Shown: positions 2,680 through 16,197 of the stretch, one piece after another
Layout of the letters: every line of letters begins with the position of its first letter
Numbering within the stretch: the stretch's first letter is position 1
NCBI RefSeq assembly: GCF_001189515.2
Contig: NZ_CP012069.2
Location: forward strand, 2,108,001-2,172,000
Direction of reading: 5' to 3'
Length of the DNA stretch: 64,000 nt
From: Olsenella sp. oral taxon 807
Lineage (GTDB): Bacteria > Actinomycetota > Coriobacteriia > Coriobacteriales > Atopobiaceae
Made by a program: the position numbers and the translations under genes
The notes under the pieces: generated by a model
What the model saw: the letters and a program-made list of their open reading frames with translations, nothing else
Database searches by the model: none
Told to the model about the DNA's origin: nothing

Positions 2680-5301
2680 CTACTCGGCGGCAGACGTGGC
2701 GCGTCCATCGGAACTCGCGGCGGGCGTGGGCCGTGCGGTGTTCCACCGCTCGCGGGCCTTCGGCAGCTCCATGTGAACACGCTCCGTAGGCGCGGGTATC
2801 TCGCCCGTACCCTTGGTGAAGACAAGCTTTCGATCATCCCCCTCGCCGTCTGCGTCCACGAGGATGATGTCCCCCTCGTGCCACCTGCCACGCAGCAGCT
2901 CCTCGGAGAGCGGATCCTCGATGAGCGTCTGGATTGCGCGACGCAAAGGACGAGCCCCATAGATGGGGTCAGTGCCCTCCTTGACGATGTGATCGCGGGC
3001 GGCATCGGTCAACTCGATGGACATGCCCTGGGCGATCATACGGTTGCGCAGATCCGTGACCATGAGGTCCACGATGCCGCGTAGCTGCTCGTGGGTAAGC
3101 GACCCAAAGACCACAATCTCGTCCACGCGGTTCAGGAACTCGGGGCGGAACAGACGCTTGAGCTCACTCATCACGCGGGAGTTTATCTCCTTATCAGAGA
3201 GCCCGCCTGCGCCCTGCGCCGAAAAGCCCATGGTGTTGGTCTGGGCGATGTCGCGCGCGCCGACGTTGGAGGTCATGATGATGACCGTGTTGGAGAAGTC
3301 GACCGTGCGTCCCTGCCCATCGGTGAGCCTGCCCTCGTCCAGTATCTGGAGGAGGACGTTGAAGACGTCGGGATGGGCCTTCTCGATCTCGTCGAAGAGT
3401 ACGACGGAGTAGGGCCTGCGACGCACCGCCTTGGTCAGCTCACCGCCCTCATCGTAACCCACGTATCCGGGAGGGGCACCAACGAGCTTGGAGACCTCGT
3501 GGCGCTCTATGAACTCCGACATGTCGAAGGAGATGAGCGCATCCTCGCTACCAAAGAGGAACTCGGCGAGCGACTTGGCGAGCTCGGTCTTGCCGACACC
3601 GGAGGGTCCGAGGAAGATGAACGAGCCTCCGGGACGACGGGGGTCCTTGAGGGGCGAGCGGCTGCGCCTGATGGCCTTGGCCACCTTGGTCACGGCCTCC
3701 TGTTGGCCCACGATGCGTTGGTGCAGAGCGTCCTCGCAGCGCAGGAGCTTGGAGGCCTCGGCCTCCGTGATGTTGGAGACGGGGATGCCCGTGATATCGG
3801 ACACGACGTCGGCGACGTCTTTGTCGGTGACGACCGTCACGGCCTTGTCGGTGCTCTCGCGCCATGACGCCTCAAGCTCGTCGCGCTTGGAGGCAAGCTC
3901 CTTCTCGCGGTCGCGCAGACGAGCAGCCTCCTCGAACTCCTGGGCACTCGCCGCCTTGGACTTCTCGTCCTTGATGCGGGCAAGCTCCTCGTCCACCTGG
4001 GCGAGCTCAGGAGGCAGGCTCATCTTGTGGACGCGGGTGCGCGCGCCCGTCTCGTCGATGATGTCGATGGCCTTGTCGGGGAGGAAGCGGTCCTGGACGT
4101 AGCGGTTGGAGAGCGTCACAGCCGAAGCCAGCGCGTCTTCGGTGTACTTGACGTGGTGGTGCCTCTCGTAGGCCTCCTGCAGGCCATGCAGGATCTCGAG
4201 GGTATCCTCGGGCGTGGGCTCTCCGATGTTGACAGGCTGGAAGCGACGTTCGAGGGCGGAGTCCTTCTCGATACGCTTGCGGTACTCCTCGGCGGTCGTG
4301 GCACCGATGACCTGAATCTCGCCGCGCGAGAGGGGCGGCTTCAGGATAGAGGCCGCATCGATGGAGCCCTCGGCCGAGCCCGCGCCGATAATGGTGTGGA
4401 TCTCGTCGATGAAGAGGATGTCGTCCTTGTTCTCCATGACCTCGGAGATGACCTTCTTGAGGCGCTCCTCGAACTCGCCGCGATACTTTGATCCGGCAAC
4501 GAGGCTCGCGACGTCGAGCGTCCAGATCTGCCTGCCGCGCAAGATGTCGGGAACATTGCCCGTGGCAACGAGCTGGGCGAGCCCCTCGACGATGGCCGTC
4601 TTGCCAACACCGGGGTCACCCAAGATGAGGGGGTTGTTCTTCTGCCTGCGTGCAAGGACCTGCATCACACGCTCCACCTCACGGTCGCGCCCTATCACGG
4701 GGTCGAGCTTGCCGTCTGCGGCGAGCTGGGTGAGGTTTCTACCAAACTGCTCGAGCATGGAGCCGTCCTCCGATTGTTGCGGACCCTGTCCCATGCCGCT
4801 GAAGAACTGCTGACCAAAGCCGACGCCCGTTGGCTGCGGGCGACCCTCCCTACCCTTGCTGTCGCTCTTCTCGACCAACTCGTTGACGGCGTTGCGAACC
4901 GCGTCCGCCGAGACGCCCATGCAGGAAAGTGCCGTCATCGCACGGTCGTCGCTCTGGGATACGATGCCCAAAAGTAGGTGCTCCGTGGCGATGTAGGTTT
5001 GGTTGCGTGCCATGGTCTCACGGTAGGCGTCCTCGAGCACGCGCTTTGCGAGCGGCGTGAAGGGAATGTGGCCTCCGGGAATGGGCTCGTTGTCTTCGGA
5101 GGAGATCTCCTTGACCGTGGCGAGGGCCTCCGTATAGGTGACGTCGAGCTTGGCAAGGGCTTGGGCGGCGATGCCCTCCCCCTCCTTTATCAGAGCCAGG
5201 AGCAGGTGCTCCGTCCCTACATACATCTTGCCGAGGCTACGCGCCTCGTCCTGCGCAAGGCTCATGACCTTGCGCGCCTTGTCGGTGAACTTCTCGAACA
5301 T
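2680..5301 (-). CDS. clpC: ATP-dependent Clp protease ATP-binding subunit ClpC
   Basis: ClpC is the AAA+ unfoldase that feeds substrates to ClpP. The 873 residues contain two Clp N repeats (about 1-145), a first ATPase module with Walker A GDPGVGKT (228-235) and Walker B LFIDEIH near 297, a UVR/coiled-coil middle segment (about 440-470), and a second ATPase module with GPSGVGKTE (565-573). The C-terminal ~35 residues are basic and low-complexity. The region between clpC and lysS, genes that lie close together in many actinobacteria, is here expanded by 7.6 kb of accessory DNA. No CtsR or HspR operator could be recognised upstream. Confidence 0.98.
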   Translation of the reverse strand: MFEKFTDKARKVMSLAQDEARSLGKMYVGTEHLLLALIKEGEGIAAQALAKLDVTYTEALATVKEISSEDNEPIPGGHIPFTPLAKRVLEDAYRETMARNQTYIATEHLLLGIVSQSDDRAMTALSCMGVSADAVRNAVNELVEKSDSKGREGRPQPTGVGFGQQFFSGMGQGPQQSEDGSMLEQFGRNLTQLAADGKLDPVIGRDREVERVMQVLARRQKNNPLILGDPGVGKTAIVEGLAQLVATGNVPDILRGRQIWTLDVASLVAGSKYRGEFEERLKKVISEVMENKDDILFIDEIHTIIGAGSAEGSIDAASILKPPLSRGEIQVIGATTAEEYRKRIEKDSALERRFQPVNIGEPTPEDTLEILHGLQEAYERHHHVKYTEDALASAVTLSNRYVQDRFLPDKAIDIIDETGARTRVHKMSLPPELAQVDEELARIKDEKSKAASAQEFEEAARLRDREKELASKRDELEASWRESTDKAVTVVTDKDVADVVSDITGIPVSNITEAEASKLLRCEDALHQRIVGQQEAVTKVAKAIRRSRSPLKDPRRPGGSFIFLGPSGVGKTELAKSLAEFLFGSEDALISFDMSEFIERHEVSKLVGAPPGYVGYDEGGELTKAVRRRPYSVVLFDEIEKAHPDVFNVLLQILDEGRLTDGQGRTVDFSNTVIIMTSNVGARDIAQTNTMGFSAQGAGGLSDKEINSRVMSELKRLFRPEFLNRVDEIVVFGSLTHEQLRGIVDLMVTDLRNRMIAQGMSIELTDAARDHIVKEGTDPIYGARPLRRAIQTLIEDPLSEELLRGRWHEGDIILVDADGEGDDRKLVFTKGTGEIPAPTERVHMELPKARERWNTARPTPAASSDGRATSAAE

Positions 5302-5706
5302 ACGGTGCTTACGCCCCCTCCTGGGTCACGTGCCGGCCTGCGTGTTGGTGACCGGCAGCTGGGCCGGCCCTGTTTTGATGGTTGTGCTTGTACCCCGATG
5401 ATGTGCCTGCGAAACCTGCAGGCGATGGAGCGGGCGAAACTCCTCAGGAGGCAAGTGTAAAAAAATGGACATAGCCCGCGCGGAGATGATGCGCCTCCTG
5501 CCACGGGCGAGACATCGGAGCATGTGGGCATGAGAACGCCTGGGCCGTTGGCGAAAGGCTGGCGGTAAGGACGCAGGTAGAGTCGTAGACGAGCTGGTTT
5601 GGCCTCGCCACATCCTGTCTCGTACCAGGAACCTACGCCTTCGTTGGCAACTCCGACGCAGCGTCAAGCAGCTGGGCCAGGCAGGACGACGGCAGCTTCG
5701 TGCTAG

Positions 5707-7057
5707 GAAAGCGATGATAAAGTCGCCGATCCCGTCCCTTCGGGACCAGCATGGGTGATTTTTGACGTGAGGAGGGCTCCAACGCCCCCAAGCGGGCTAC
5801 GCCGGTCTCCGGGGGCCATGCCGCAGCCTCCCAGACCATGGCGGGACGGCCAGCGGTAGGCTATGCCGCGGCCGGCGCCCCACCCTCCGCCCTCCGTCGC
5901 CGCTCCTCGAGCCTCTCGCGTTGCAGGGCTATCCTCTCCGCCGACAGCGCGAGGGGCGGCCCGCAGAGCCGCCGTCCCCGCCTCGCGATCATGCAGCCGG
6001 CTGCGGCGACGGCGGCGAAGGCCTGGTTGGACACCTTGGCGAGCCCCTTATAGCGCGTCTTCCGCAGCCCGAATATGTCCTTGACCCAGTGGAAGACGTG
6101 CTCGACGACACTGCGGGCGGCCGACTTGGCGGCCTCTGCGACCAGGTCGTCCTCGCCGACCTGCGAGCGCCTCTTGGCGACGATCCACTCGACGCCGGAG
6201 AGGGAGGGGTCGCCGGCGACCTCCGGCCTCCTCCCGACGCCGACGTAGCCGGCGTCGGCCCAGACGCGCTCGTCACCCTCGCGCACGAGGTCGGGGACCT
6301 GGTCGAGGTCGTGGACGTTCGCGGCGTCCATGCGCACCGAGTGCGGCACGCCCGTCTCGGCGTCCACGCCCACCCCGAGCTTGTACCCGAAGTGCCAGTT
6401 CTGCCCCTTCTTGGCCTGGTGGGCGTCGGGATCCCGCGCGCCGTCGGCGTTCCTCGTCGACGACGGGCTCTCGATGAAGGTGGCGTCCACGATGGTGCCC
6501 CGGCTCACGGCGAGCCCTCCGTCCGCGGCGGACCCGAAGGCCGAGGAGACCATGGCCTCGCCGACCCCGCAGCGCTCGAGCAGGTGGCGAAACTTGCACA
6601 GGGTCGTGGCGTCGGGGACCTCGAAGGGCGCCACGCCGACGAAGGAGCGCATCGTCGCGGAGTCCCAGACCTGGTCCTCGCACTCGCGGTCGGAGAGGCC
6701 GAAGCAGACCTGCACCATGTACATGCGCAGCAGCACGAGGTCGTCGACCCTCGGCCTGCCCATCGCGGGGCCGGCCCCCCTCGCCCCGGCGTCGGCCCCG
6801 CGGGCCTCCCTCACGAGGGCGAGCCAGGCGTCCCAGGGGCAGGACTTGGAGAGGCGGTCGAGGAACCGGGAGCGCCTGGTCTCGCGCTTCCGTCCCATGC
6901 CCATCTCGACGTCAGAGAATGTGAGCTGTGCCATGCGGATACCCCCAACCTAGTCGCCAACGACCTCGAATTATATCATATCCGCAGGTAGGAGGTATGG
7001 ATGGACAGCGATCCGCCCCTGTCCCGGGCTTCTCGGCGGGACTTTATCATCGCTTTC
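5707..7057 (-). mobile_element. IS5-family insertion sequence, complete
   Basis: The element is 1351 bp, with near-perfect terminal inverted repeats GAAAGCGATGATAAAGTC and its complement at 5707 and 7057. It is bounded on both sides by CTAG (5703-5706, 7058-7061), which fits the YTAR target of the IS5 subgroup. CTAG is self-complementary, so it could be either the target duplication or the outermost repeat bases. One transposase gene fills most of it. Confidence 0.9.
5861..6934 (-). CDS. IS5-family DDE transposase
   Basis: This 357-residue protein has the IS5 layout: N-terminal QLTFSDVE and PWDAW, a DUF772-like helical region with LSDRECEDQ and VPDATTLCKFRHLLE, then the DDE catalytic core. 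The probable catalytic residues are the Asp of IVDATFIE, the Asp of WADAGYVG and the Glu of VVEHVFHWVK. The KKGQNWHFGYK segment between the first two is typical. The frame is intact and full length, so the element may still be active. The Ala-rich C-terminal tail is not informative. Confidence 0.93.
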   Translation of the reverse strand: MAQLTFSDVEMGMGRKRETRRSRFLDRLSKSCPWDAWLALVREARGADAGARGAGPAMGRPRVDDLVLLRMYMVQVCFGLSDRECEDQVWDSATMRSFVGVAPFEVPDATTLCKFRHLLERCGVGEAMVSSAFGSAADGGLAVSRGTIVDATFIESPSSTRNADGARDPDAHQAKKGQNWHFGYKLGVGVDAETGVPHSVRMDAANVHDLDQVPDLVREGDERVWADAGYVGVGRRPEVAGDPSLSGVEWIVAKRRSQVGEDDLVAEAAKSAARSVVEHVFHWVKDIFGLRKTRYKGLAKVSNQAFAAVAAAGCMIARRGRRLCGPPLALSAERIALQRERLEERRRRAEGGAPAAA

Positions 7058-7127
7058 CTAGGCTTCCCTGACAGCGACGGTGCCCTCACGTTCCAGTACC
7101 GCAGGTGAGCGAACCCCACGACCATGC

Positions 7128-7278
7128 CACTCGATGGCATCGAGTGTACGGCTGTCGTGCCACTCGGTAGCGCCGAATGGCACAAGATAATGCCGTACCT
7201 GCGCGTTTATGGCTTGCCGTGCCACTCGGTAGTGCCGAGTGCGCAATTGTTGTACCACTCGGTGACGTCGCGTGGCAC
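7128..7278. repeat. Array of four hairpin palindromes, copy A
   Basis: Four short palindromes stand in a row at 7128-7146, 7157-7183, 7219-7244 and 7252-7278. Each is built on the core CCACTCGGTnnnnCCGAGTGG or a variant. The second and third are separated by a 35-base spacer that is conserved in the other copy at 12682-12835. The array begins about 20 bases after the stop of a zinc-ribbon gene remnant. Confidence 0.8.
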
Positions 7279-7284
7279 CACCGC

Positions 7285-7390
7285 AGGCTGACGTCCCATC
7301 GACCGCGAAGAGCACCCGCCCATCCGTCTCTTGGGCCCAGGGGAGGCCTGGGTTCCCATCGAAGGCATGGGTCTAGCCCTTCGGGCGCAC
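7285..7390 (-). pseudogene. Fragment of the lysS HD-domain region
   Basis: Read on the minus strand this gives THAFDGNPGLP, then GRVLFAVDG, which aligns without gaps to THTSDRNPDLP and ERVLFAADE in the HD part of LysS (coding 13.18-13.26 kb). The codon before THAF is a stop where LysS has Gln. It is joined on one side to hairpin array A and on the other to the DUF6020 fragment, so it looks like debris of a duplication of the lysS 3' end. Confidence 0.7.
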
Positions 7391-8340
7391 CCCCGTGTCC
7401 CCCATGGTTGGAGGGCGGTCCCTAGGAATATCGGATAGCAACACACAAGGGGAAGCAGGTAGCGCATGAGGCTCGCCGGCCCCACCGTGAAAGTCAACCA
7501 GACGGCAAGTGCTGGCACAAAGGGAAGCGCAGCTCTGCGCTTAGCGGCGGCAACGCTCGCACCCAAGCACCCAAGCATGAACCAGAACGGAAAGGCCAGA
7601 CCAAACATAACAGAAAGCAGGGGGTTGCCCCTAAACGCATCGAAGATGGCCACATCGACATAGCGGGCAAGCAGCCAGGGAATACGACTCTGCCGCACAA
7701 AGCCATACTGGTCGTTTCCCAACGACGCGCCATCAGCCATGTCCTGACCTATCACGACTACGCCAACATAAACTCGCTCGGATGCCTTGTTATCAGAGGA
7801 GAGTGGATACCAGTACGGCACATTGAGCGAGAGGAAGGCGTCCAGATAGGTCACGGGATGACTCGCCCCTAGGCTCACCCACACGCCAAGCAGCTCTGCG
7901 AGCTGTCCACCTTGTGCAGAGAAGCTGCCCTTGACCGGGTCTGCCAGCCGAGGGGTGTAGAGATCGCCGATCTGGTCAACGGGCAGGAAGGCGGAGAGGA
8001 CCTTCCTCTGCTCCGCAGTGAGTGAGTCCGGATCATCCCGCACAACACGGGCAAGCTGCTGCAAGGGGACGCTCAGCGCCTCCCCCACACTACCGGGGAC
8101 AACATCGAGCACCCCATACAGCACCCCCGAGGCGACAAAACCCAGCGCCACAGACAGGAGCGACAAGATGAGCATGCGGCGCCAGCCCGTGCGGCCAGCC
8201 ATACACGCGCTCACCGGTACTGCCAAGGCCAGCGCATAGATCGCGTTATTGCGCAAAAGGCAGCAGGCCAGGGCGACGGAATGGTCCCATAAGCATGTAT
8301 TGTACCTATATGCGAGGGTCCATGAGTGCGGTGAGGATCC
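7391..8340 (-). pseudogene. DUF6020-type membrane protein, truncated at both ends
   Basis: The open frame runs from just after a TGA at 8341-8343. It encodes several hydrophobic segments and conserved-looking blocks (LRNNAIYA, SVPLQQLARV, LADPVKG, PYWYPL) that I recognise as the C-terminal half of DUF6020 integral membrane proteins, usually much longer. No start with a ribosome binding site is evident and the N-terminal half is missing. The frame runs on to 7207, but past VCCYPIFLG it reads through the lysS fragment and the hairpin array and is no longer family-like. I treat it as a remnant; a TTG or ATG start inside could still give a short product. Confidence 0.6.
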
Positions 8341-8658
8341 TCACCATCTGCGCAGGTAGCGTCCATTCGACAAGGTCAGGTGGCGAGCCACACCCTTCTC
8401 GACAGGTCGCTTCTGCTCGTCTCAGCAAACGCGGCGCGTACCATGCGAAACGGCTCAAGTACGCTTGGAGGTGCTCCACATGACGCCTGGCCCACGGGCG
8501 GGGTGGTCTGCGGGCACCCCGCTGATCCTTTGTGGCGGACGGATTGCCCTTCTCGCCAGTGACGAACATTGCCAGCCCGTGCGGGCCGGTCGCAACCGGG
8601 GATGATAACCGTCCGTACGCCTCTCGCAACCCCAAACATCTCTTTTATGATCCGCGCA
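8341..8658. other. No gene recognised
   Basis: About 320 bases between the truncated DUF6020 gene and the leader of the first zinc-ribbon gene. Short frames exist on both strands, but none resembles a known family or has a ribosome binding site. Confidence 0.5.
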
Positions 8659-8767
8659 AGCCGGATGGGACCCGCCCGTCACGGGTAGCCAAGGTGTAAA
8701 ATCGCGAAGAGGAACCACACGGCAGGCGCGGGCGGTCTCACTTGCGCCACGATGACGGGAGGCACCC
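8659..8767 (+). promoter_or_regulatory. Leader of zinc-ribbon gene 1 (diverged copy)
   Basis: This leader has the same layout as those at 9608 and 10622: a GTGTAAAAT block that can serve as a -10 box, then about 60 bases ending in GGGAGGCACCC directly before the ATG. It matches the other leaders only partly. Confidence 0.5.
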
Positions 8768-9532
8768 ATGTTCTGCCCGGGCCGCAACATGAGAAACTCT
8801 GACAAGGGCGGGTCCTGCGGGGCCGACCTGTCAAGCACAAGCACGGGTGCGCCCGGATCCCAGGTGACCGCCCAAGCTCCGGCATCCGGCGCGTCCACCC
8901 CGTCTAGGCCCACAACCGCAACGCACAGGCGTGTTGGGCGCGTCATCGCGGGAGTCATTGCGGTCGCCATCGTCGTCGCGGCGGGACTGAACACAAGCTG
9001 GTTCGGCCTAGCCGGGCCCCACCTTGTACCGGGAAACTACACCCTCAGCGGCTCGTCGGCATCGAACACGATAGTCGCCTCCGTCACCCAGGGCAATCAC
9101 GTCAGCCTTGAATACGAGGGGCACAGCTGGGTGGGAGACGCGCAGGTCAGCCGAGTGGGGAAGGACCATCTTCACGTGCGGGTACCGATCGCAGAGGAGG
9201 GTGGCCAGCTCTCGGGCTGCATGCTTAACCTCGTGATCCCGCAGGGCGTCCCTGGCAGCGTCATCGGAACCTGGGCGATGTGGTTCACGGACGAGAATGG
9301 CTTTCCAAACCTTGGCGGCATTGCGTGGGCGGTGATCGAGGATGGCGACACCCTCAGAGGCGGGGTGGTCTCGTCTTCCGATGCGCCGGCCGCAGCTAGG
9401 TCCCTTGGGATGGGCACCTTCCAGGGCGATTCCGGCGCGAAGCCAGGCAGCTGGACCAGGCAGGACGACGGCAGCTTCGCGCTGACCTTCCCTGACAGCG
9501 ACGGCGCCCTCACGTTCCGATACCACAGGTGA
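8768..9532 (+). CDS. Zinc-ribbon-family membrane-anchored protein, ribbon degenerate
   Basis: First open member of a paralogue family of unknown function. The plan is a short N-terminal zinc ribbon, a Pro/Thr/Ala-rich linker, one transmembrane helix (about residues 60-76), then a ~170-residue domain of alternating polar/hydrophobic strands predicted outside the cell, ending in SWTRQDDGSFALTFPDSD and FRYHR. In this copy the ribbon has lost most ligands: MFCPGRNMRN replaces the MFCPSCGTRN of its sisters, and the second knuckle keeps a single Cys. It is 254 residues long. GGGAGGCACCC before the ATG is the ribosome binding site. It may be a gene in early decay. Confidence 0.75.
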   Translation: MFCPGRNMRNSDKGGSCGADLSSTSTGAPGSQVTAQAPASGASTPSRPTTATHRRVGRVIAGVIAVAIVVAAGLNTSWFGLAGPHLVPGNYTLSGSSASNTIVASVTQGNHVSLEYEGHSWVGDAQVSRVGKDHLHVRVPIAEEGGQLSGCMLNLVIPQGVPGSVIGTWAMWFTDENGFPNLGGIAWAVIEDGDTLRGGVVSSSDAPAAARSLGMGTFQGDSGAKPGSWTRQDDGSFALTFPDSDGALTFRYHR

Positions 9533-9607
9533 GCAAACGTCCATAGCGGCGCTCGATGACATCGGATGCGTAGCCGCGTGAGGGCGCGCCGCACCAACTT
9601 CGGTCGG

Positions 9608-9722
9608 CGTACGAGCGGGATGGGGAACCTGCCCGTTACAGGCGACCGGGGTGTAGAATTGTGGACAACGATCCACATGGACGGCGTGGGCGGCGTCCCG
9701 CGCCGCGATACGGGAGGCACCC
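9608..9722 (+). promoter_or_regulatory. Leader of zinc-ribbon gene 2 (identical to the next one)
   Basis: These 115 bases are identical to 10622-10736, and identity continues about 23 bases into the coding region. A likely -10 box TAGAAT lies at 9654-9659. The predicted 5' UTR of ~55 bases holds a small hairpin (GTGGA/TCCAC) and the GGGAGG ribosome binding site. Confidence 0.65.
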
Positions 9723-10583
9723 ATGTTCTGCCCAAGCTGCGGCACACAAATCCCCGACGGAAGCAGGCTCTGCGGGTCCTGCGGGGCCGACCTGTCGGCA
9801 AGAGGCACGGGCGCGCCCGCAGCACCGGCGCCTGGACAGGTGCCAGTGCTGCGCGTCCTCATCCCCGCCAAGCACGCGTCTGCGGCGCGCGGCCGCGTCA
9901 TCGCGGGGGTCGCCGTAGCCGTCACTGTCGCCCTCGTCGTCGCGGTGGGGCTGCACACTGGCTGGTTCGGCCTCGCCGGGTCCCACCTCGTACCAGGGAC
10001 CTACACCTTCAGTAGCTCATCGGTATCGTACGAGATGGTCCTCTTCGTCACTGAGGGCGATCACGTCGGCCTCACGATAGGGAAAGACAGCTGGGTTGAG
10101 GGAGACGCACGGGTCAGCCAGGCGGGAAGTGACCACCTTCACGTACAGGCGCCGCTCACAACCGCAGTACTGCATGAGCCTGGGGCTACTACTACCACAT
10201 TCGAAGAGATGGGGGTCAGCCGGGCAGGCATCGCGGCGCTCGGACTCGGCGATGACCAGCCCTCGGGCTACACGCTCAACCTCGTGGTCCCACGAGGCGC
10301 CCCTGACAGCATCGTCGGGACCTGGGCATGGTGGATCGAGGACGAGAGGGGCTTGCCACATGAGAGCGAGGACTATTTTGGGTGGGTGGAGGTCGAGGGC
10401 GACGGCAGCTTCAGAGTCGGAGACGTTTCGTCCTCCGACGCAGCGGCTGCGGTCGAGTCCCTCAAGGCGGGCAACTTCCGGGGCAACTCTGAATTTATGT
10501 CAGGCAGCTGGGCCAGACAGAGCGACGGCAGCTTCGTGCTGACCTCCTACGGTAACGCCGTCACATTCCAGTATCGTAGGTGA
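9723..10583 (+). CDS. Zinc-ribbon-family membrane-anchored protein
   Basis: This 286-residue paralogue has an intact zinc ribbon: CPSCG at residues 3-7 and CGSCG about 15 residues later, as in zinc_ribbon_2 proteins. A Pro/Ala linker follows, then one transmembrane helix (about residues 58-80) ending in GWFGLAGSHLVPGTYTF, which opens the predicted outside domain. That domain is larger than in gene 1 because of an insert around HEPGATTTTFEE. It ends in SWARQSDGSFVL and FQYRR. No catalytic motif is visible. It is presumably a surface protein; whether it binds a ligand or another protein cannot be told from sequence. Confidence 0.8.
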   Translation: MFCPSCGTQIPDGSRLCGSCGADLSARGTGAPAAPAPGQVPVLRVLIPAKHASAARGRVIAGVAVAVTVALVVAVGLHTGWFGLAGSHLVPGTYTFSSSSVSYEMVLFVTEGDHVGLTIGKDSWVEGDARVSQAGSDHLHVQAPLTTAVLHEPGATTTTFEEMGVSRAGIAALGLGDDQPSGYTLNLVVPRGAPDSIVGTWAWWIEDERGLPHESEDYFGWVEVEGDGSFRVGDVSSSDAAAAVESLKAGNFRGNSEFMSGSWARQSDGSFVLTSYGNAVTFQYRR

Positions 10584-10621
10584 GCGAGTCGTCACCGTAG
10601 CGCGCCATAGATCCCATCAGA

Positions 10622-10736
10622 CGTACGAGCGGGATGGGGAACCTGCCCGTTACAGGCGACCGGGGTGTAGAATTGTGGACAACGATCCACATGGACGGCG
10701 TGGGCGGCGTCCCGCGCCGCGATACGGGAGGCACCC
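10622..10736 (+). promoter_or_regulatory. Leader of zinc-ribbon gene 3
   Basis: Base-for-base the same as 9608-9722, including the TAGAAT box and GGGAGG site. The two genes behind these leaders differ in most of their coding sequence, so the leader has either been copied recently or is under selection. Confidence 0.65.
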
Positions 10737-11570
10737 ATGTTCTGCCCAAGCTGCGGCACGAGAAACCCCGACGGAGTCCGGTTCTGCAGGGCCTGCGGAA
10801 CCAACCTATCGGGCAGAAGAGCTGGTACGACCCAAAGGCCAGTGCCCGCCGCGTCGGCGACACCCACGCCCGCAGCCCAGGCGCCCACTCCTGCCGTACC
10901 TACGGGCAGGGTCATCGGACAGGGCAGGCGCAGGTCTAATCCCTTCGCGGCAGTGGCGGCCATGGTCGTGGTAGGCATCTTCGTTCTCGCGGTGGGATTG
11001 CAGGTAGGATCGAGCACAAGCTGGTTCGGCCTCACCAAGCCCCACCTCACGCCGGGAACCTACACCCTTAGCCGGAGCTTGTCGATCCTCTTCAACAGCT
11101 GGTTGCCGCCAGCCACAATGACCGTCTCTGTCGCCGAGGGCGATCGTGTCAGCTTCACGGTCGAGGGAGCTAGCTGGGTGGGAGACGCACAGGTCAGCCA
11201 AGCCGGGAAGGACCAGCTTCACATACAGGTACCAATCGCAGCGAAAAATGGCCAGCCCTCGGGTCACTCGTTCAACTTCGTGGTCCCGCAGGGCGCTCCA
11301 GACAGCGTCACTGGGATCTGGGCATCATGGACCACAGATGAGAATGGCCTGCCAGATAACGGCGTCGCATGGGCGATGATCGAGGACGGCGGCACCTTCA
11401 GGGCGCAATCCGTTCCAAACCCCGACGCGGCGGCTGTAGCCGAGTCCCTCAAGGCGGGTAACTTCCGGGGCGATCCCGACAGGAAGCCAGGCAAGTGGGT
11501 AAAGCGAGAGGACGGCAGTTACAAGCTAACTCTTAACGATTACACCTATGTGTTCCAGTACCAAAAGTGA
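10737..11570 (+). CDS. Zinc-ribbon-family membrane-anchored protein
   Basis: 277 residues. The N-terminal ribbon CPSCGTRNPDGVRFCRACG is complete (four Cys). After a Pro/Thr/Ala linker comes one transmembrane helix (about residues 75-95), then STSWFGLTKPHLTPGTYTL and the family's outside domain with SWVGDAQVSQAGKDQLHI, matching gene 1 closely, and the C-terminal FQYQK. It shares its leader with gene 2, but its outside domain is closer to gene 1, which suggests recombination among the copies. Confidence 0.8.
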   Translation: MFCPSCGTRNPDGVRFCRACGTNLSGRRAGTTQRPVPAASATPTPAAQAPTPAVPTGRVIGQGRRRSNPFAAVAAMVVVGIFVLAVGLQVGSSTSWFGLTKPHLTPGTYTLSRSLSILFNSWLPPATMTVSVAEGDRVSFTVEGASWVGDAQVSQAGKDQLHIQVPIAAKNGQPSGHSFNFVVPQGAPDSVTGIWASWTTDENGLPDNGVAWAMIEDGGTFRAQSVPNPDAAAVAESLKAGNFRGDPDRKPGKWVKREDGSYKLTLNDYTYVFQYQK

Positions 11571-11760
11571 ACAAGAACCCATCGACACGCTCGGTAAGGT
11601 CGGGCGCAACGCCATGGGAGGCTCGCGCGTCGTCGACTCCGATTGGCACGCAAGTCGACGGGACCTTGCTCTCCGCAGGTGGTCCCAAGTGTAGAATCTC
11701 AGAAGAGACATCGCGCGGGCGGCACGGGCGGGGCGCGCATCAGGACGACGGGAGGCACCC

Positions 11761-12665
11761 ACGTTCTACCCGAGCTGCGGCACGAGAAACCCCGACGGGA
11801 GCAGGTTCTGCGGGTCCTGCGGAACCGACCTGTCGAGCAGAGGAGCCGGTACGACCGCATCCCAAGCGGCCACCCAGGCTCCGGCGCCCGGCGCACCCGC
11901 CTTTGCCAGACCCGCAGCTGCGGCGCGTGGGCGCAGCGCCGGTCGCGGCCGCGTCATCGCAGGGATCGCTGCGACCGTCGCAATCGCCCTCGTCGTCGCG
12001 GTGGGGCTGCGCACAGGCTGGTTCGCCTCGCCCAGCCCCATCTCACGCCAGGGACCTACACCTTCACCAGCTCCCTCGTGGACAGCTCGCTTTCGTATAC
12101 GATGGTCCTCTCTGTCGCCGAGGGCGATAGTGTCATCTTCACGTTTGAACGAGGGCAGAGCTTTGGGGGAAACGCACGAGTCAGCTGGGCCGGGAGGGAC
12201 CACCTTTATGTGCAAGTGCCGGTCACGCGTGCGTCGCTGGGTCTTGGAGAGAACAGCAAACCCGAATTCGTCAATGTAAAGGATAGCCTGAAAAGCGTCA
12301 CGGCACTCAGTCTCGGCGACGACCAGCCCCTGGCCGGCTCGATCCACTTCGTGTTCCCACGGGGCGCCCCAGACAGCATCGTCGGGACCTGGGCAATGTG
12401 GATCACGGACGAGAATGGCTCGACGGTACCGTATGGAGATATGAACCTTTTCATATGGCAGAGATACGAGGATGACGGCAGCTTCAGAGACGGGTACGTC
12501 CCGTCCTCCGACGTGGCGGCCACAGTCGACTCCCTCAAGGCGGGCACCTTCCAGGGAAACTCCAATGTGGAAGTGTCAGGCAGCTGGACCAAGCAGGACG
12601 ACGGCAGCTTCGTGCTGAACACCCCCTACGGTAGCTCCACCAACACGTTCCAGTACCACAGGTGA
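11761..12665 (+). pseudogene. Zinc-ribbon-family gene 4, broken
   Basis: Three lesions are visible against the sister genes. The start ATG is ACG at 11761. The first ligand Cys is Tyr (FYPSCG for FCPSCG). Near 12026 one base is missing in TGGTTCGCCTCGCC compared with TGGTTCGGCCTCGCC, shifting the frame just after the transmembrane helix. The downstream frame then runs intact from HLTPGTYTF to FQYHR and TGA. Another frame opens upstream at 11643, but it is not homologous in its first part. The leader keeps the GTGTAGAAT block. Confidence 0.85.
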
Positions 12666-12681
12666 GCGAACCCACGCGACC

Positions 12682-12835
12682 GCGCACTCGGTGGCGTCGA
12701 GTGGACGATTGTCGTGCCACTCGGTGACGCCAAGTGGCACAAAATAATGCCATACCTGCACGTTTACGACTTGCCGTGCCACTCGGTGGTACCGAGTGCG
12801 CGGTCGTAGTGCCATTCGGCGCTATCGAGTGGCAG
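12682..12835. repeat. Array of four hairpin palindromes, copy B
   Basis: Same arrangement as 7128-7278: palindromes at about 12682-12705, 12714-12740, 12776-12801 and 12809-12835, with the spacer between the second and third conserved in both copies. It lies between zinc-ribbon gene 4 and the convergent end of lysS, so it could act as a terminator region for either, although no T-run follows. Confidence 0.8.
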
Positions 12836-12924: not shown

Positions 12925-15180
12925 CTACTCCCCAGTCTCCTTGGCCTTCGCGTTATAGTCGCCGACAGGCGCGATGGCCTTCATGGCCTCGAGCACGGAG
13001 GCGAGCAGGTCGTCGAGCTCCATATCGTTGAGTTCGGCACCCATACGGATGACGTCGCGATCGCAGCCTGCGGCGAAGCGCTTGTCCTTGAACTTCTTCT
13101 TGAGGGACTTGAGGGGCATGTCGGTCACGGAGCCCGACGGCCTCATACGGGCCGCCGCCTGGATGAGGCCCGAGAGCTCGTCGGCCGCAAAGAGCACCCG
13201 CTCCATCTTCTTCTCGGGCTTGGGAAGGTCTGGGTTCCTGTCAGAGGTATGGGTCTGGATGGCGTGCGCAAGCTCGGGATTCGCACCCGCCTCGGCCAGA
13301 AGCTCGGCGGCCTTGACGGTATGGGTCTTCTCGTCCTGCCACTTCTCCCAGTCGAGGTCATGGAGAAGACCAACCTGACCCCAGAAATCGACGTTCTCGG
13401 GATCGTAGGTAGCGGCATAGTAGCGCATAAGACCCTCGAGCGTCTCTCCGTGCTGAATGTGGAACTCATCCTCGTTGTACTTCTTGAGCAGCTCGAAGGC
13501 CTGCTCTCGGGTAAGGCCGCTCTCCAGCTTCTTAGCCATGTCACTCTCTCCGTCTCTCTCCGCGCTCGCACCGGCGGCGGAGTCTGCCGCAATCGTGTCC
13601 ACGTCCGTCACGCCCAGGCCACATGTGCCAGCAACCTGCTCCGCGATCTGTGCCCTCGTGATCGTCTCGGGCTTCATCTGCGGAAAGAGCAGCACGTCGC
13701 GGATGGACGGCTGATCGCAAAAGAGCATGACCATGCGGTCGATGCCGTAGCCGATGCCACCTGTGGGGGGCATGCCGTACTCGAGCGCACGCACGTAGTC
13801 GTAGTCATAGCCCATTGCCTCGTCATCGCCAAGACCCTTGGCGGCAACCTGCTCGGCAAAGCGGCCGGCCTGGTCAATGGGGTCATTGAGCTCCGAGAAG
13901 GCGTTGGCGTACTCATGCCCGCCGATGACCAGCTCGAAGCGGTCCGTGAGACGCGTATCCTCGTCCTTACGCTTGGCAAGCGGCGAGACCTCCTCCGGGT
14001 AGTCACACACGAAGGTGGGGTTCACGAGCGTAGACTCGCCAAGCTCGTCATAGAGCGAAAACAGCAGCTTTCCCGCACCCCAACCCTCCTGCCACTCGAT
14101 GTCGTGCGCCTCGCACAGCTCACGCAGACGCCCGATGGGCGTATCCATATTGACGCACTCGCCGACACGCTCAGACACTATCTCGATGAGCGAGCGAGAG
14201 GCCCAGCTACCGCTCATGTCTATCGTCTGGCCTTGGTAGCTGATGAGCTCGCGGCCCTCCTCACAGCCGCAGATGCCGCGCGCGATGGCCTTGAAGAGCC
14301 CCTCGGTGAGCCGCTTCATGCCCTCGAGATCGGAGTAGGCGCAGTAGGCCTCCATCGAGGTGAACTCGGGGTTATGCGTAAGGTCCATGCCCTCGTTGCG
14401 AAACTGCCTTCCGAGCTCGAAGACGCGCTCCATGCCTCCCACGACGAGGCGCTTGAGCGGCAGCTCGGTGGCTATGCGCAGATAGAAGTCGCGATCAAGC
14501 GCATTGAAGTGCGTCGCAAACGGCTTGGCGTTGGCACCTCCCAAGATGGCGTGCATCATGGGCGTCTCGACCTCGAGGTAACCCGCAGACTCCATGTAGC
14601 GGCGGATGAGGCTAATGATGGCTGAGCGCTTGCGAAAGACCTCGCGGACCTCGGGGTTCATGATCAGATCGATGTAGCGCTGGCGGTAGCGGACCTCTCG
14701 GTCCGTGAGGCCATGGAACTTCTCGGGCAACGGGCGCAGGCTCTTGGAGAGAAGCCTCACCGAGCTCGGTGCAATGGAGAGCTGCCCGCGACGCGTACGC
14801 AACACCACGCCCGTCGCCTCTATGATGTCACCGAGATCGAGCTGGCCGAGCAGTCCCCAGTCAACCTCTGCCATGTCGTTGACACGACAGAAGAGCTGGA
14901 TCTGTCCTGTTGCGTCCTCGAGCACGATAAAGCGGGCCTTGCCCTGCTTGCGCAGCGCCCTCACGCGTCCAGCGACGCTGTAGGCATCCTTGGTGCTCGC
15001 ACCGTCCTCGAGCGAGGCGTAGCGCTCCTCGAGTTCTGCCGCATGCACTGTGACCGTACTTGTGGCGGGATACGGGTTCACGCCCGCGTCGATGAGCGCC
15101 TGACGCCTCGCCCGGCGCACAGCCCGCTCGTCGTTGATGTCTATGTTTGCGTTTGGCGCACCCGCGTCCACTTGTGCCAC
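12925..15180 (-). CDS. lysS: Lysyl-tRNA synthetase with C-terminal HD domain
   Basis: Class II LysRS charges tRNA-Lys. The protein has an OB-fold anticodon domain (about residues 50-140), then the catalytic domain with motif 1 (near VETPMMH), motif 2 (FRNEGMDLTHNPEFTSME) and motif 3 (GIGYGIDRMVML), ending near residue 500. About 190 extra residues follow a Ser/Ala-rich linker and begin MAKKLESG. They carry an HD-type core (GLLHDLDWEKW, then AIQTHTSDRNPDLP), so this is a fusion with an HD phosphohydrolase-like protein. I chose the GTG at 15180, preceded by GGGGAGGGTCAG, over a TTG 21 codons upstream. It lies downstream of greA. Confidence 0.95.
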   Translation of the reverse strand: MAQVDAGAPNANIDINDERAVRRARRQALIDAGVNPYPATSTVTVHAAELEERYASLEDGASTKDAYSVAGRVRALRKQGKARFIVLEDATGQIQLFCRVNDMAEVDWGLLGQLDLGDIIEATGVVLRTRRGQLSIAPSSVRLLSKSLRPLPEKFHGLTDREVRYRQRYIDLIMNPEVREVFRKRSAIISLIRRYMESAGYLEVETPMMHAILGGANAKPFATHFNALDRDFYLRIATELPLKRLVVGGMERVFELGRQFRNEGMDLTHNPEFTSMEAYCAYSDLEGMKRLTEGLFKAIARGICGCEEGRELISYQGQTIDMSGSWASRSLIEIVSERVGECVNMDTPIGRLRELCEAHDIEWQEGWGAGKLLFSLYDELGESTLVNPTFVCDYPEEVSPLAKRKDEDTRLTDRFELVIGGHEYANAFSELNDPIDQAGRFAEQVAAKGLGDDEAMGYDYDYVRALEYGMPPTGGIGYGIDRMVMLFCDQPSIRDVLLFPQMKPETITRAQIAEQVAGTCGLGVTDVDTIAADSAAGASAERDGESDMAKKLESGLTREQAFELLKKYNEDEFHIQHGETLEGLMRYYAATYDPENVDFWGQVGLLHDLDWEKWQDEKTHTVKAAELLAEAGANPELAHAIQTHTSDRNPDLPKPEKKMERVLFAADELSGLIQAAARMRPSGSVTDMPLKSLKKKFKDKRFAAGCDRDVIRMGAELNDMELDDLLASVLEAMKAIAPVGDYNAKAKETGE

Positions 15181-15295
15181 CTGACCCTCCCCGCTACGTT
15201 TTGGCCTGACGGCGTGGTGCGCCGACAAGGTCCAACCTGTCAAAAAGAGCCTCTTGTTAGTCCGCAGACCCTCTGGCTGCCAGCGACCTTGTCAC

Positions 15296-15888: not shown

Positions 15889-16197
15889 CTACTGAGCCTG
15901 CTCGATCTTGGAGCCGCACTTGTTGCAGTACTCTGAGCCAGCGACGTTCTTGGCGCCGCACTTGTTGCAGAAGACCACGTCGTCCGAGTCGGCGGACTCC
16001 TCCTCGACGGTGTCGCTCACGTCGGTGACATCGGTGTCCTTGGCCTTACCCTCACCCTCGTCCATACCCTCGCGGATGCTCTTGACCGTTGCCCCCAATG
16101 ACTTGCCCAGTTTCGGGAGGTTCTTGGGTCCGAAGAGAAGGAGGGCAATGGCCAAGATAACGAGGAGCTCTGGAACGCCCATGCCAAAGATTGACAT
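15889..16197 (-). CDS. tatA: Twin-arginine translocase TatA with a C-terminal zinc ribbon
   Basis: TatA forms the channel part of the Tat exporter for folded proteins. The start at 16197 follows a strong site (CAGGAGGTTATTG). The N-terminal membrane helix MGVPELLVILAIALLLFGP and the amphipathic helix KNLPKLGKSLG are canonical. An acidic tail follows, then CNKCGAKNVAGSEYCNKCG at the very C-terminus: four Cys in two CxxC pairs, as in a zinc ribbon. TatA proteins normally end in an unstructured tail. tatC is not in the window. The protein is 102 residues. A Tat-type signal is present on the tannase-like protein at 49.3 kb. Confidence 0.93.
   Translation of the reverse strand: MSIFGMGVPELLVILAIALLLFGPKNLPKLGKSLGATVKSIREGMDEGEGKAKDTDVTDVSDTVEEESADSDDVVFCNKCGAKNVAGSEYCNKCGSKIEQAQ

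What the first reader, a model, noticed from the sequence alone, without database searches (positions are those of the whole stretch)
5542..12665. Decaying family of zinc-ribbon, single-TM, secreted-domain proteins
At least five copies of one architecture lie in 7 kb and form a decay series: two with complete Cys4 ribbons, one with a ruined ribbon but open frame, one with lost start codon, lost Cys and a frameshift, and one internally deleted and split by an IS. The outside domain is not one I know. Tandem paralogues with shuffled segments suggest surface variation or interaction with a fast-changing partner.
Basis: partly seen in the sequence, partly recalled or inferred. Interest (0 to 1): 0.6.

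Follow-up and report, generated by a model that had tools for sequence, protein, structure and literature searches.

The report
Decaying tandem zinc-ribbon membrane protein family
A bacterium related to Olsenella carries five side-by-side copies, two of them intact and three broken, of a membrane-anchored protein whose outer part is a previously uncatalogued beta-barrel-like domain, rare and patchy among its relatives; the kind of protein is common in these bacteria, the outer part is new to the databases searched.

Summary
Between lysS and clpC lie five tandem copies of one design: N-terminal Cys4 ribbon, one membrane span, about 170-210 outside residues. C and D are intact, B has a ruined ribbon, E lost its start codon, one Cys and the frame, A is deleted internally and cut by an IS5-family element. 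Each of B-E has its own leader. The array is absent from 4 of 4 other genus genomes; in two of them lysS and clpC are neighbours. The outside domain matches no non-ribbon Pfam or NCBIfam family above cut-off. Its nearest relatives are in two Olsenella genomes (an independently duplicated tandem pair, and a single copy inside a ribbon-protein island); weaker relatives are scattered in the order (14 of 395 genomes at E <= 0.001, 8 of them in the profile). AlphaFold predicts a confident all-beta, barrel-like domain without significant PDB match. Antigenic shuffling is not supported: no mosaic signal in the coding part, loops no more variable than strands; only a 138-bp promoter/start tract was exchanged between C and D. 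Best reading: a lineage-specific, fast-evolving, partly decayed expansion of an envelope-binding or sensing protein of the common Coriobacteriales ribbon-TM-ectodomain kind.

The parts
5589..5702 (+). Copy A, 5' remnant: membrane exit motif (TSWFGL), first strand, then a large internal deletion to the last part of the outside domain
   Evidence: translation; repeat families D7, D10, D11
5703..7061 (-). IS5-family insertion sequence in copy A, 22-bp perfect inverted repeats, CTAG at both ends (probable target duplication, inferred); transposase 5861-6934
   Evidence: inverted repeat I5; NCBIfam transpos_IS5_4 231.6 bits against cut-off 140
7062..7108 (+). Copy A, 3' remnant (FPDSDGALTFQYRR, stop)
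   Evidence: translation; repeat family D6
8768..9532 (+). Copy B: open frame of 254 aa, ribbon cysteines mostly lost, span and outside domain present
   Evidence: ORF; no ribbon match at E <= 1
9723..10583 (+). Copy C: intact, 286 aa, Cys4 ribbon, one span, outside domain with a loop insert also present in E
   Evidence: ORF; Zn_Ribbon_1 33.7 bits; alignment A1
10737..11570 (+). Copy D: intact, 277 aa; the copy whose structure was predicted
   Evidence: ORF; Zn_Ribbon_1 35.7 bits; model
11761..12665 (+). Copy E: ATG lost (ACG), first ribbon Cys lost, frame broken near 12025; outside domain open at 12027-12662
9608..9745 (+). 138-bp tract of copy C identical to 10622-10759 of copy D (leader, start, first ribbon codons): recent exchange or conversion
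   Evidence: flanks are far less alike
10622..10759 (+). the same tract in copy D
9652..9659 (+). TGTAGAAT, -10-like motif 63-65 nt before the start position; counterparts at 8695-8702 (TGTAAAAT, copy B), 10666-10673 (D) and 11690-11697 (E)
   Evidence: read; the consensus promoter scan did not flag it

Best explanation
A lineage-specific tandem expansion, now partly decayed, of one N-in/C-out single-span membrane protein. The N-terminal Cys4 zinc ribbon sits in the cytoplasm, one helix crosses the membrane, and an outside domain folds as an all-beta, barrel-like unit of about 12 strands with one helix. Such ribbon-TM-ectodomain proteins are a common kit in Coriobacteriales, sometimes in islands and carrying different outside modules (PASTA, C-type lectin, DUF5050, this domain). 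The likely mechanism is that the outside domain binds a ligand at the cell envelope (wall polymer, lipid or other small molecule) and the ribbon docks to or reports to a cytoplasmic partner. The array arose by repeated duplication at the lysS-clpC junction; each copy kept its own leader; C and D remain functional candidates while B, E and A are losing function. Shown: architecture, copies, lesions, relatives, absence in sister genomes. Predicted: fold. Inferred: topology, ligand binding, docking role.
For: Copies, lesions and leaders. The four window copies group with 100/100 support apart from the Olsenella rows, whose tandem pair is 56% identical to each other and 42% to KH3B4. lysS and clpC adjacent without the array in G001 and G003. 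The ribbon kit is common: 34 ribbon matches in the own genome, 28 of them over cut-off; 73 of 120 genomes searched match the whole protein at E <= 0.001, mostly through the ribbon. Island in Olsenella sp. KH3B4 with kinase, FHA, ABC/FtsX, ribbon + PASTA + C-type lectin and ribbon + DUF5050 proteins around the homologue. Fold: outside domain pLDDT 63-92 by blocks of ten in D, mean 83.2 and pTM 0.78 for the KH3B4 domain alone. Past coding constraint: branch dN/dS for D 0.51 (bootstrap 0.31-0.81, P(>=1) = 0.004), for C 0.59 (P = 0.043); E's outside domain has no stop in 212 codons (P = 0.063 after 100 random changes, 0.009 after 200).
Against: No structure match is significant: Foldseek best E 0.005 and 0.072, VIA best Z 7.4 and 8.0, values the tool calls typical of models without a clear match; the Z 8.0 row is a transmembrane autotransporter barrel, so shape alone. 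No ligand, partner or expression data. Branch dN/dS for B 0.73 (0.42-1.36) and E 0.63 (0.37-1.16) does not exclude neutral drift. No gene beside the window array was seen beside the Olsenella homologues. Most genomes of the order lack the outside domain, so it is not part of a general function.
Confidence: 0.55

Rival explanations
1. A dispensable relic: duplication at a permissive intergenic site followed by drift, with no function kept by any copy at present.
For: Three of five copies broken, an IS inside one, a truncated DUF6020 gene in the middle; absent from 4 of 4 other genus genomes; dN/dS 0.5-0.7 is high for a constrained gene.
Against: C and D keep intact ribbon, span, domain, start and leader; D's branch dN/dS is below 1 (P(>=1) = 0.004).
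Confidence: 0.25
2. Surface or antigenic variation: the copies exchange segments of the outside domain to change what is displayed.
For: Tandem paralogues; the larger indels fall in predicted loops; one recent 138-bp exchange between C and D.
Against: The exchanged tract is leader and ribbon start, not the outside domain; no mosaic signal in coding sequence (p = 0.53); strands and loops about equally divergent; no silent promoterless donors.
Confidence: 0.08
3. Receptor of the VtrC/ToxS type: an outside lipocalin-like barrel binds bile salt or lipid and signals through the span to a cytoplasmic output.
For: VtrC (5kew) Z 5.5 with the KH3B4 model and 4.5 with D, and streptavidin-, FABP- and MoaF-type barrels among the same rows; VtrA/VtrC-like systems are described as fast-evolving (PMC9214523, abstract and outline read).
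Against: Z values near background; no DNA-binding family and no two-gene cassette; the ribbon is a generic one.
Confidence: 0.1

Closest known systems
Staphylococcus aureus TcaA (ribbon-TM-ectodomain wall protein)
   Same: Single span, intracellular zinc finger, most of the protein outside, as predicted for TcaA in PMC10328498 (passages read)
   Different: No Pfam or NCBIfam match of the outside domain beyond ribbon families and weak sub-cut-off rows; 277-286 residues in all against 454 for TcaA (PMC10611510, passage read); tandem copies
Olsenella sp. KH3B4 ribbon-TM protein, L091:7767-8555 (FOHD01000002.1)
   Same: Same order of ribbon, span with SWFGL exit motif and homologous outside domain, 27-30% identical to the window copies
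   Different: Single copy, inside an island of ribbon proteins with kinase, FHA and ABC genes
Uncultured Olsenella RUG001 tandem pair, L092:1185-2072 and 2109 onward (OMVS01000056.1)
   Same: Same architecture and also tandem; the second copy seems to leave its frame near the 3' end
   Different: Duplicated independently: pair 56% identical, 24-33% to the window copies
Calycin-like and MoaF-type beta-barrels in the PDB
   Same: Best-ranked similar shapes for D: 5hal Z 7.4 over 97 residues, rmsd 3.4; 4q51 Z 7.2 over 103, rmsd 3.4
   Different: Not significant in Foldseek; about 12 predicted strands; no sequence match in the PDB

Membership tests
Zn_Ribbon_1 (PF13240) | Match over Pfam's curated cut-off of 25 bits | tested here: met
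   C 33.7 and D 35.7 bits, E remnant 34.2 bits; B none at E <= 1
Ribbon-TM-ectodomain membrane protein | N-terminal ribbon, one span, large C-terminal part | tested here: met
   One hydrophobic span from residue 54 (C) and 66 (D) by hydropathy; Arg/Lys before the span and none just after it (read), so N-in is inferred
TcaA | TcaA-type outside domains | tested here: inconclusive
   No TcaA family among Pfam or NCBIfam rows at E <= 1; whether these libraries hold TcaA models was not checked
Lipocalin/calycin-like barrel | Significant structural similarity to a solved member | tested here: inconclusive
   0 Foldseek PDB matches at E <= 0.001 in two searches; VIA Z at most 7.4 for such barrels
VtrA/VtrC co-component receptor | Two-gene cassette with DNA-binding output domain | tested here: not met
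   Ribbon, span and outside domain lie in one protein; no DNA-binding family over cut-off in the Pfam scan
Antigenic variation by gene conversion | Mosaic exchange within the displayed domain | tested here: not met
   62 informative sites in the outside domain, 25/23/14, permutation p = 0.41
Antigenic variation by gene conversion | Changes concentrated in exposed loops | tested here: not met
   Identical cells: 283 of 564 in strands (50%), 202 of 376 in loops (54%)
Known anti-phage defence protein | PADLOC match | tested here: not met
   0 families for 3 proteins at E <= 0.1

The most novel reading that the evidence does not exclude
The outside domain is a new, fast-evolving ligand-sensing beta-barrel of Coriobacteriales, in which a generic cytoplasmic zinc ribbon serves as a common plug for interchangeable outside sensors; in this species the sensor was amplified, and conversion of the promoter and start region keeps the surviving copies under common control while their outside domains diverge.
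Probability: 0.12. Interest if true: 0.6.

Novelty: new variant of a known kind. Interest (0 to 1): 0.32.

Why it matters
Ribbon-TM-ectodomain proteins are abundant and unexplained in these bacteria (28 ribbon matches over cut-off in this genome alone). A defined new ectodomain family with a confident predicted fold, intact and broken sister copies as natural controls, and clear relatives in two Olsenella genomes gives a handle on what the kit does. The decay series itself is ordinary gene-family turnover.

Tried and rejected
Searches that gave nothing for the outside domain: Pfam and NCBIfam (only sub-cut-off rows), PDB sequences, PHROGs (weak ribbon rows and one row at E 0.042), PADLOC, plasmids and phages, IMG/VR with two alignments, the genome collection with the window copies alone (the second scan with the Olsenella rows found 2 loci). 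NCBIfam's CsgH row for copy B (20.9 bits, cut-off 35) was dismissed as sub-cut-off and not seen in the other copies.

Structure: VIA lists no row with Z above 8.0; this does not exclude a known fold. BFVD gave no match at E <= 0.001. The promoter consensus scan found nothing on the plus strand.

Rejected: surface variation by shuffling, a known defence protein, plasmid or phage cargo. Paper searches; passages read in PMC10611510, PMC9239133 and PMC10328498, abstract and outline in PMC9214523. No paper on such proteins in Olsenella or Coriobacteriia turned up in these listings; only the held open library was searched.
Full report
What is there. The window is part of one 3.21-Mb contig (G000:C1:2108001-2172000). 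Genomes of its family include Olsenella. Between clpC (2680-5301, minus) and lysS (12925-15243, minus) lie five plus-strand copies of one gene. B, C and D are open frames of 254, 286 and 277 aa. E begins with ACG where the others have ATG, reads FYPSCG where C and D read FCPSCG, and breaks frame near 12025; beyond that the outside domain is open for 212 codons. A keeps TSWFGLATSCLVPGTYAF, jumps over most of the domain to SSSWARQDDGSFVLG, and is then cut by an IS5-family element with 22-bp ends; its last 14 codons lie on the other side.

Leaders and exchange. All four readable copies have GGGAGGCACCC directly before the start position and TGTARAAT 63-65 nt before it (read). C and D are identical over 138 bp, 9608-9745 and 10622-10759, while their outside domains are only 50% identical with synonymous divergence 0.69. 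This tract must have been exchanged or converted recently (inference). Elsewhere there is no sign of shuffling: 118 informative sites support the three possible pairings 40/40/38; clustering is significant only with leaders included (p = 0.016), not in the coding part (92 sites, p = 0.53) or the outside domain (62 sites, p = 0.41).

Selection. Pairwise dN/dS of the outside domain is 0.53-0.65. Per branch, over 171 shared codons: D 0.51 (bootstrap 0.31-0.81), C 0.59 (0.33-1.10), E 0.63 (0.37-1.16), B 0.73 (0.42-1.36). D is constrained; for C the evidence is moderate; B and E cannot be told from neutral. E's domain without a stop suggests that its breakage is recent compared with its divergence. 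Strand residues and loop residues are about equally different between copies (283 of 564 against 202 of 376 identical cells).

Relatives. With the four window domains as profile, 1 of 140 family genomes (the own one) matched at E <= 0.01. The whole protein had hit G056 beyond the ribbon; adding its two rows brought G066, later named Olsenella sp. KH3B4, at 5.2e-28. With seven rows, 21 of 395 order genomes matched at E <= 0.1, many of them weakly. With twelve rows, 14 of 395 matched at E <= 0.001; eight of these supplied rows of the profile, six are further ones, of which G310 (3.2e-23) is strong and the rest lie between 3.9e-7 and 6.8e-4. Of the five distant proteins read, four carry a ribbon and a span before the domain; G309's open frame begins with a span and shows no ribbon. 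None of the four other genomes of the genus matched at the thresholds; at E <= 1 G001 has one row at 0.251. In two of them, G001 and G003, lysS and clpC are neighbours with a gap of a few hundred bases; in G002 and G004 clpC was not found in the 12 kb fetched beside lysS. The seven-row tree holds the window copies together with 100/100 support; C and E group with 85/96, and both carry a loop insert. The twelve-row tree is poorly resolved and places the very long branch G082 beside the window copies.

Surroundings in relatives. In KH3B4 the single homologue lies among a Pkinase protein, an FHA protein, several ribbon proteins (one with PASTA and C-type lectin, one with DUF5050) and an ABC/FtsX protein. 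The RUG001 pair is flanked on both sides by proteins related to the large KH3B4 ribbon protein. The own genome keeps part of such an island elsewhere (homologues of the gene after it and of the ribbon/PASTA/lectin protein at about G000:C1:2441800-2444200), without the domain discussed here. This is the ground for calling the window proteins members of a ribbon-TM-ectodomain kit.

Fold. D's outside domain is predicted with fair to good confidence as strands and one helix, and the KH3B4 domain alone with mean pLDDT 83.2 and pTM 0.78, 12 strands and one helix. Foldseek finds nothing at E <= 0.001 in PDB or BFVD. VIA ranks beta-barrels first: 5hal Z 7.4 and MoaF 4q51 Z 7.2 for D; autotransporter barrel 3qq2 Z 8.0 (147 residues, rmsd 4.6), a designed 12-strand barrel Z 6.5, 4q51 Z 6.1 and VtrC 5kew Z 5.5 for KH3B4. 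The tool warns that such values are common for models without a clear match, so 'barrel-like' is as far as I go.

Mechanism. Shown are architecture, copies, lesions and distribution. Predicted is the fold. Inferred are N-in topology, binding of an envelope ligand by the outside domain, and docking by the ribbon. The closest studied architecture is S. aureus TcaA, predicted with one span, an intracellular zinc finger and most of the protein outside, and linked to wall teichoic acid (PMC10328498, passages); homology of the outside part is not indicated. The reading of a VtrC-like sensor is kept as a rival.

Verdict. A genuine, lineage-specific, partly decayed expansion; a new ectodomain family on a known kind of protein; surface shuffling not supported.

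Noticed in passing
window 7128-7277 and 12685-12834; about 20 places in the genome: A dispersed repeat of about 150 bp made of four hairpin units (CACTCG-GTGGCGT-CGAGTG, some with the loop inverted) around a conserved AT-richer spacer. The own genome gives 22 and 34 matches to two query copies, 0 of 4 other genus genomes any. Y1_Tnp-type transposase genes exist twice in the genome, but no link was tested.
   Followed up: partly
window 15892-16197, minus: A TatA protein (TatA_B_E 49.5 bits) with a C-terminal zinc ribbon (Zn_Ribbon_1 28.8 bits, over cut-off): the same ribbon type fused to a protein-export component.
   Followed up: partly
window 12925-15243, minus: Lysyl-tRNA synthetase with a C-terminal HD-domain extension (HD 22.0 bits, at cut-off).
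   Followed up: no
window 7207-8256, minus: C-terminal part of a DUF6020 membrane protein (profile positions 315-587 of 604), apparently a truncated gene that runs into the repeat; it sits between copies A and B.
   Followed up: no
L092:2109-3161: The second RUG001 copy seems to leave its frame near its 3' end and runs on for some 80 codons without the usual C-terminal strand: decay of a tandem copy there too.
   Followed up: no
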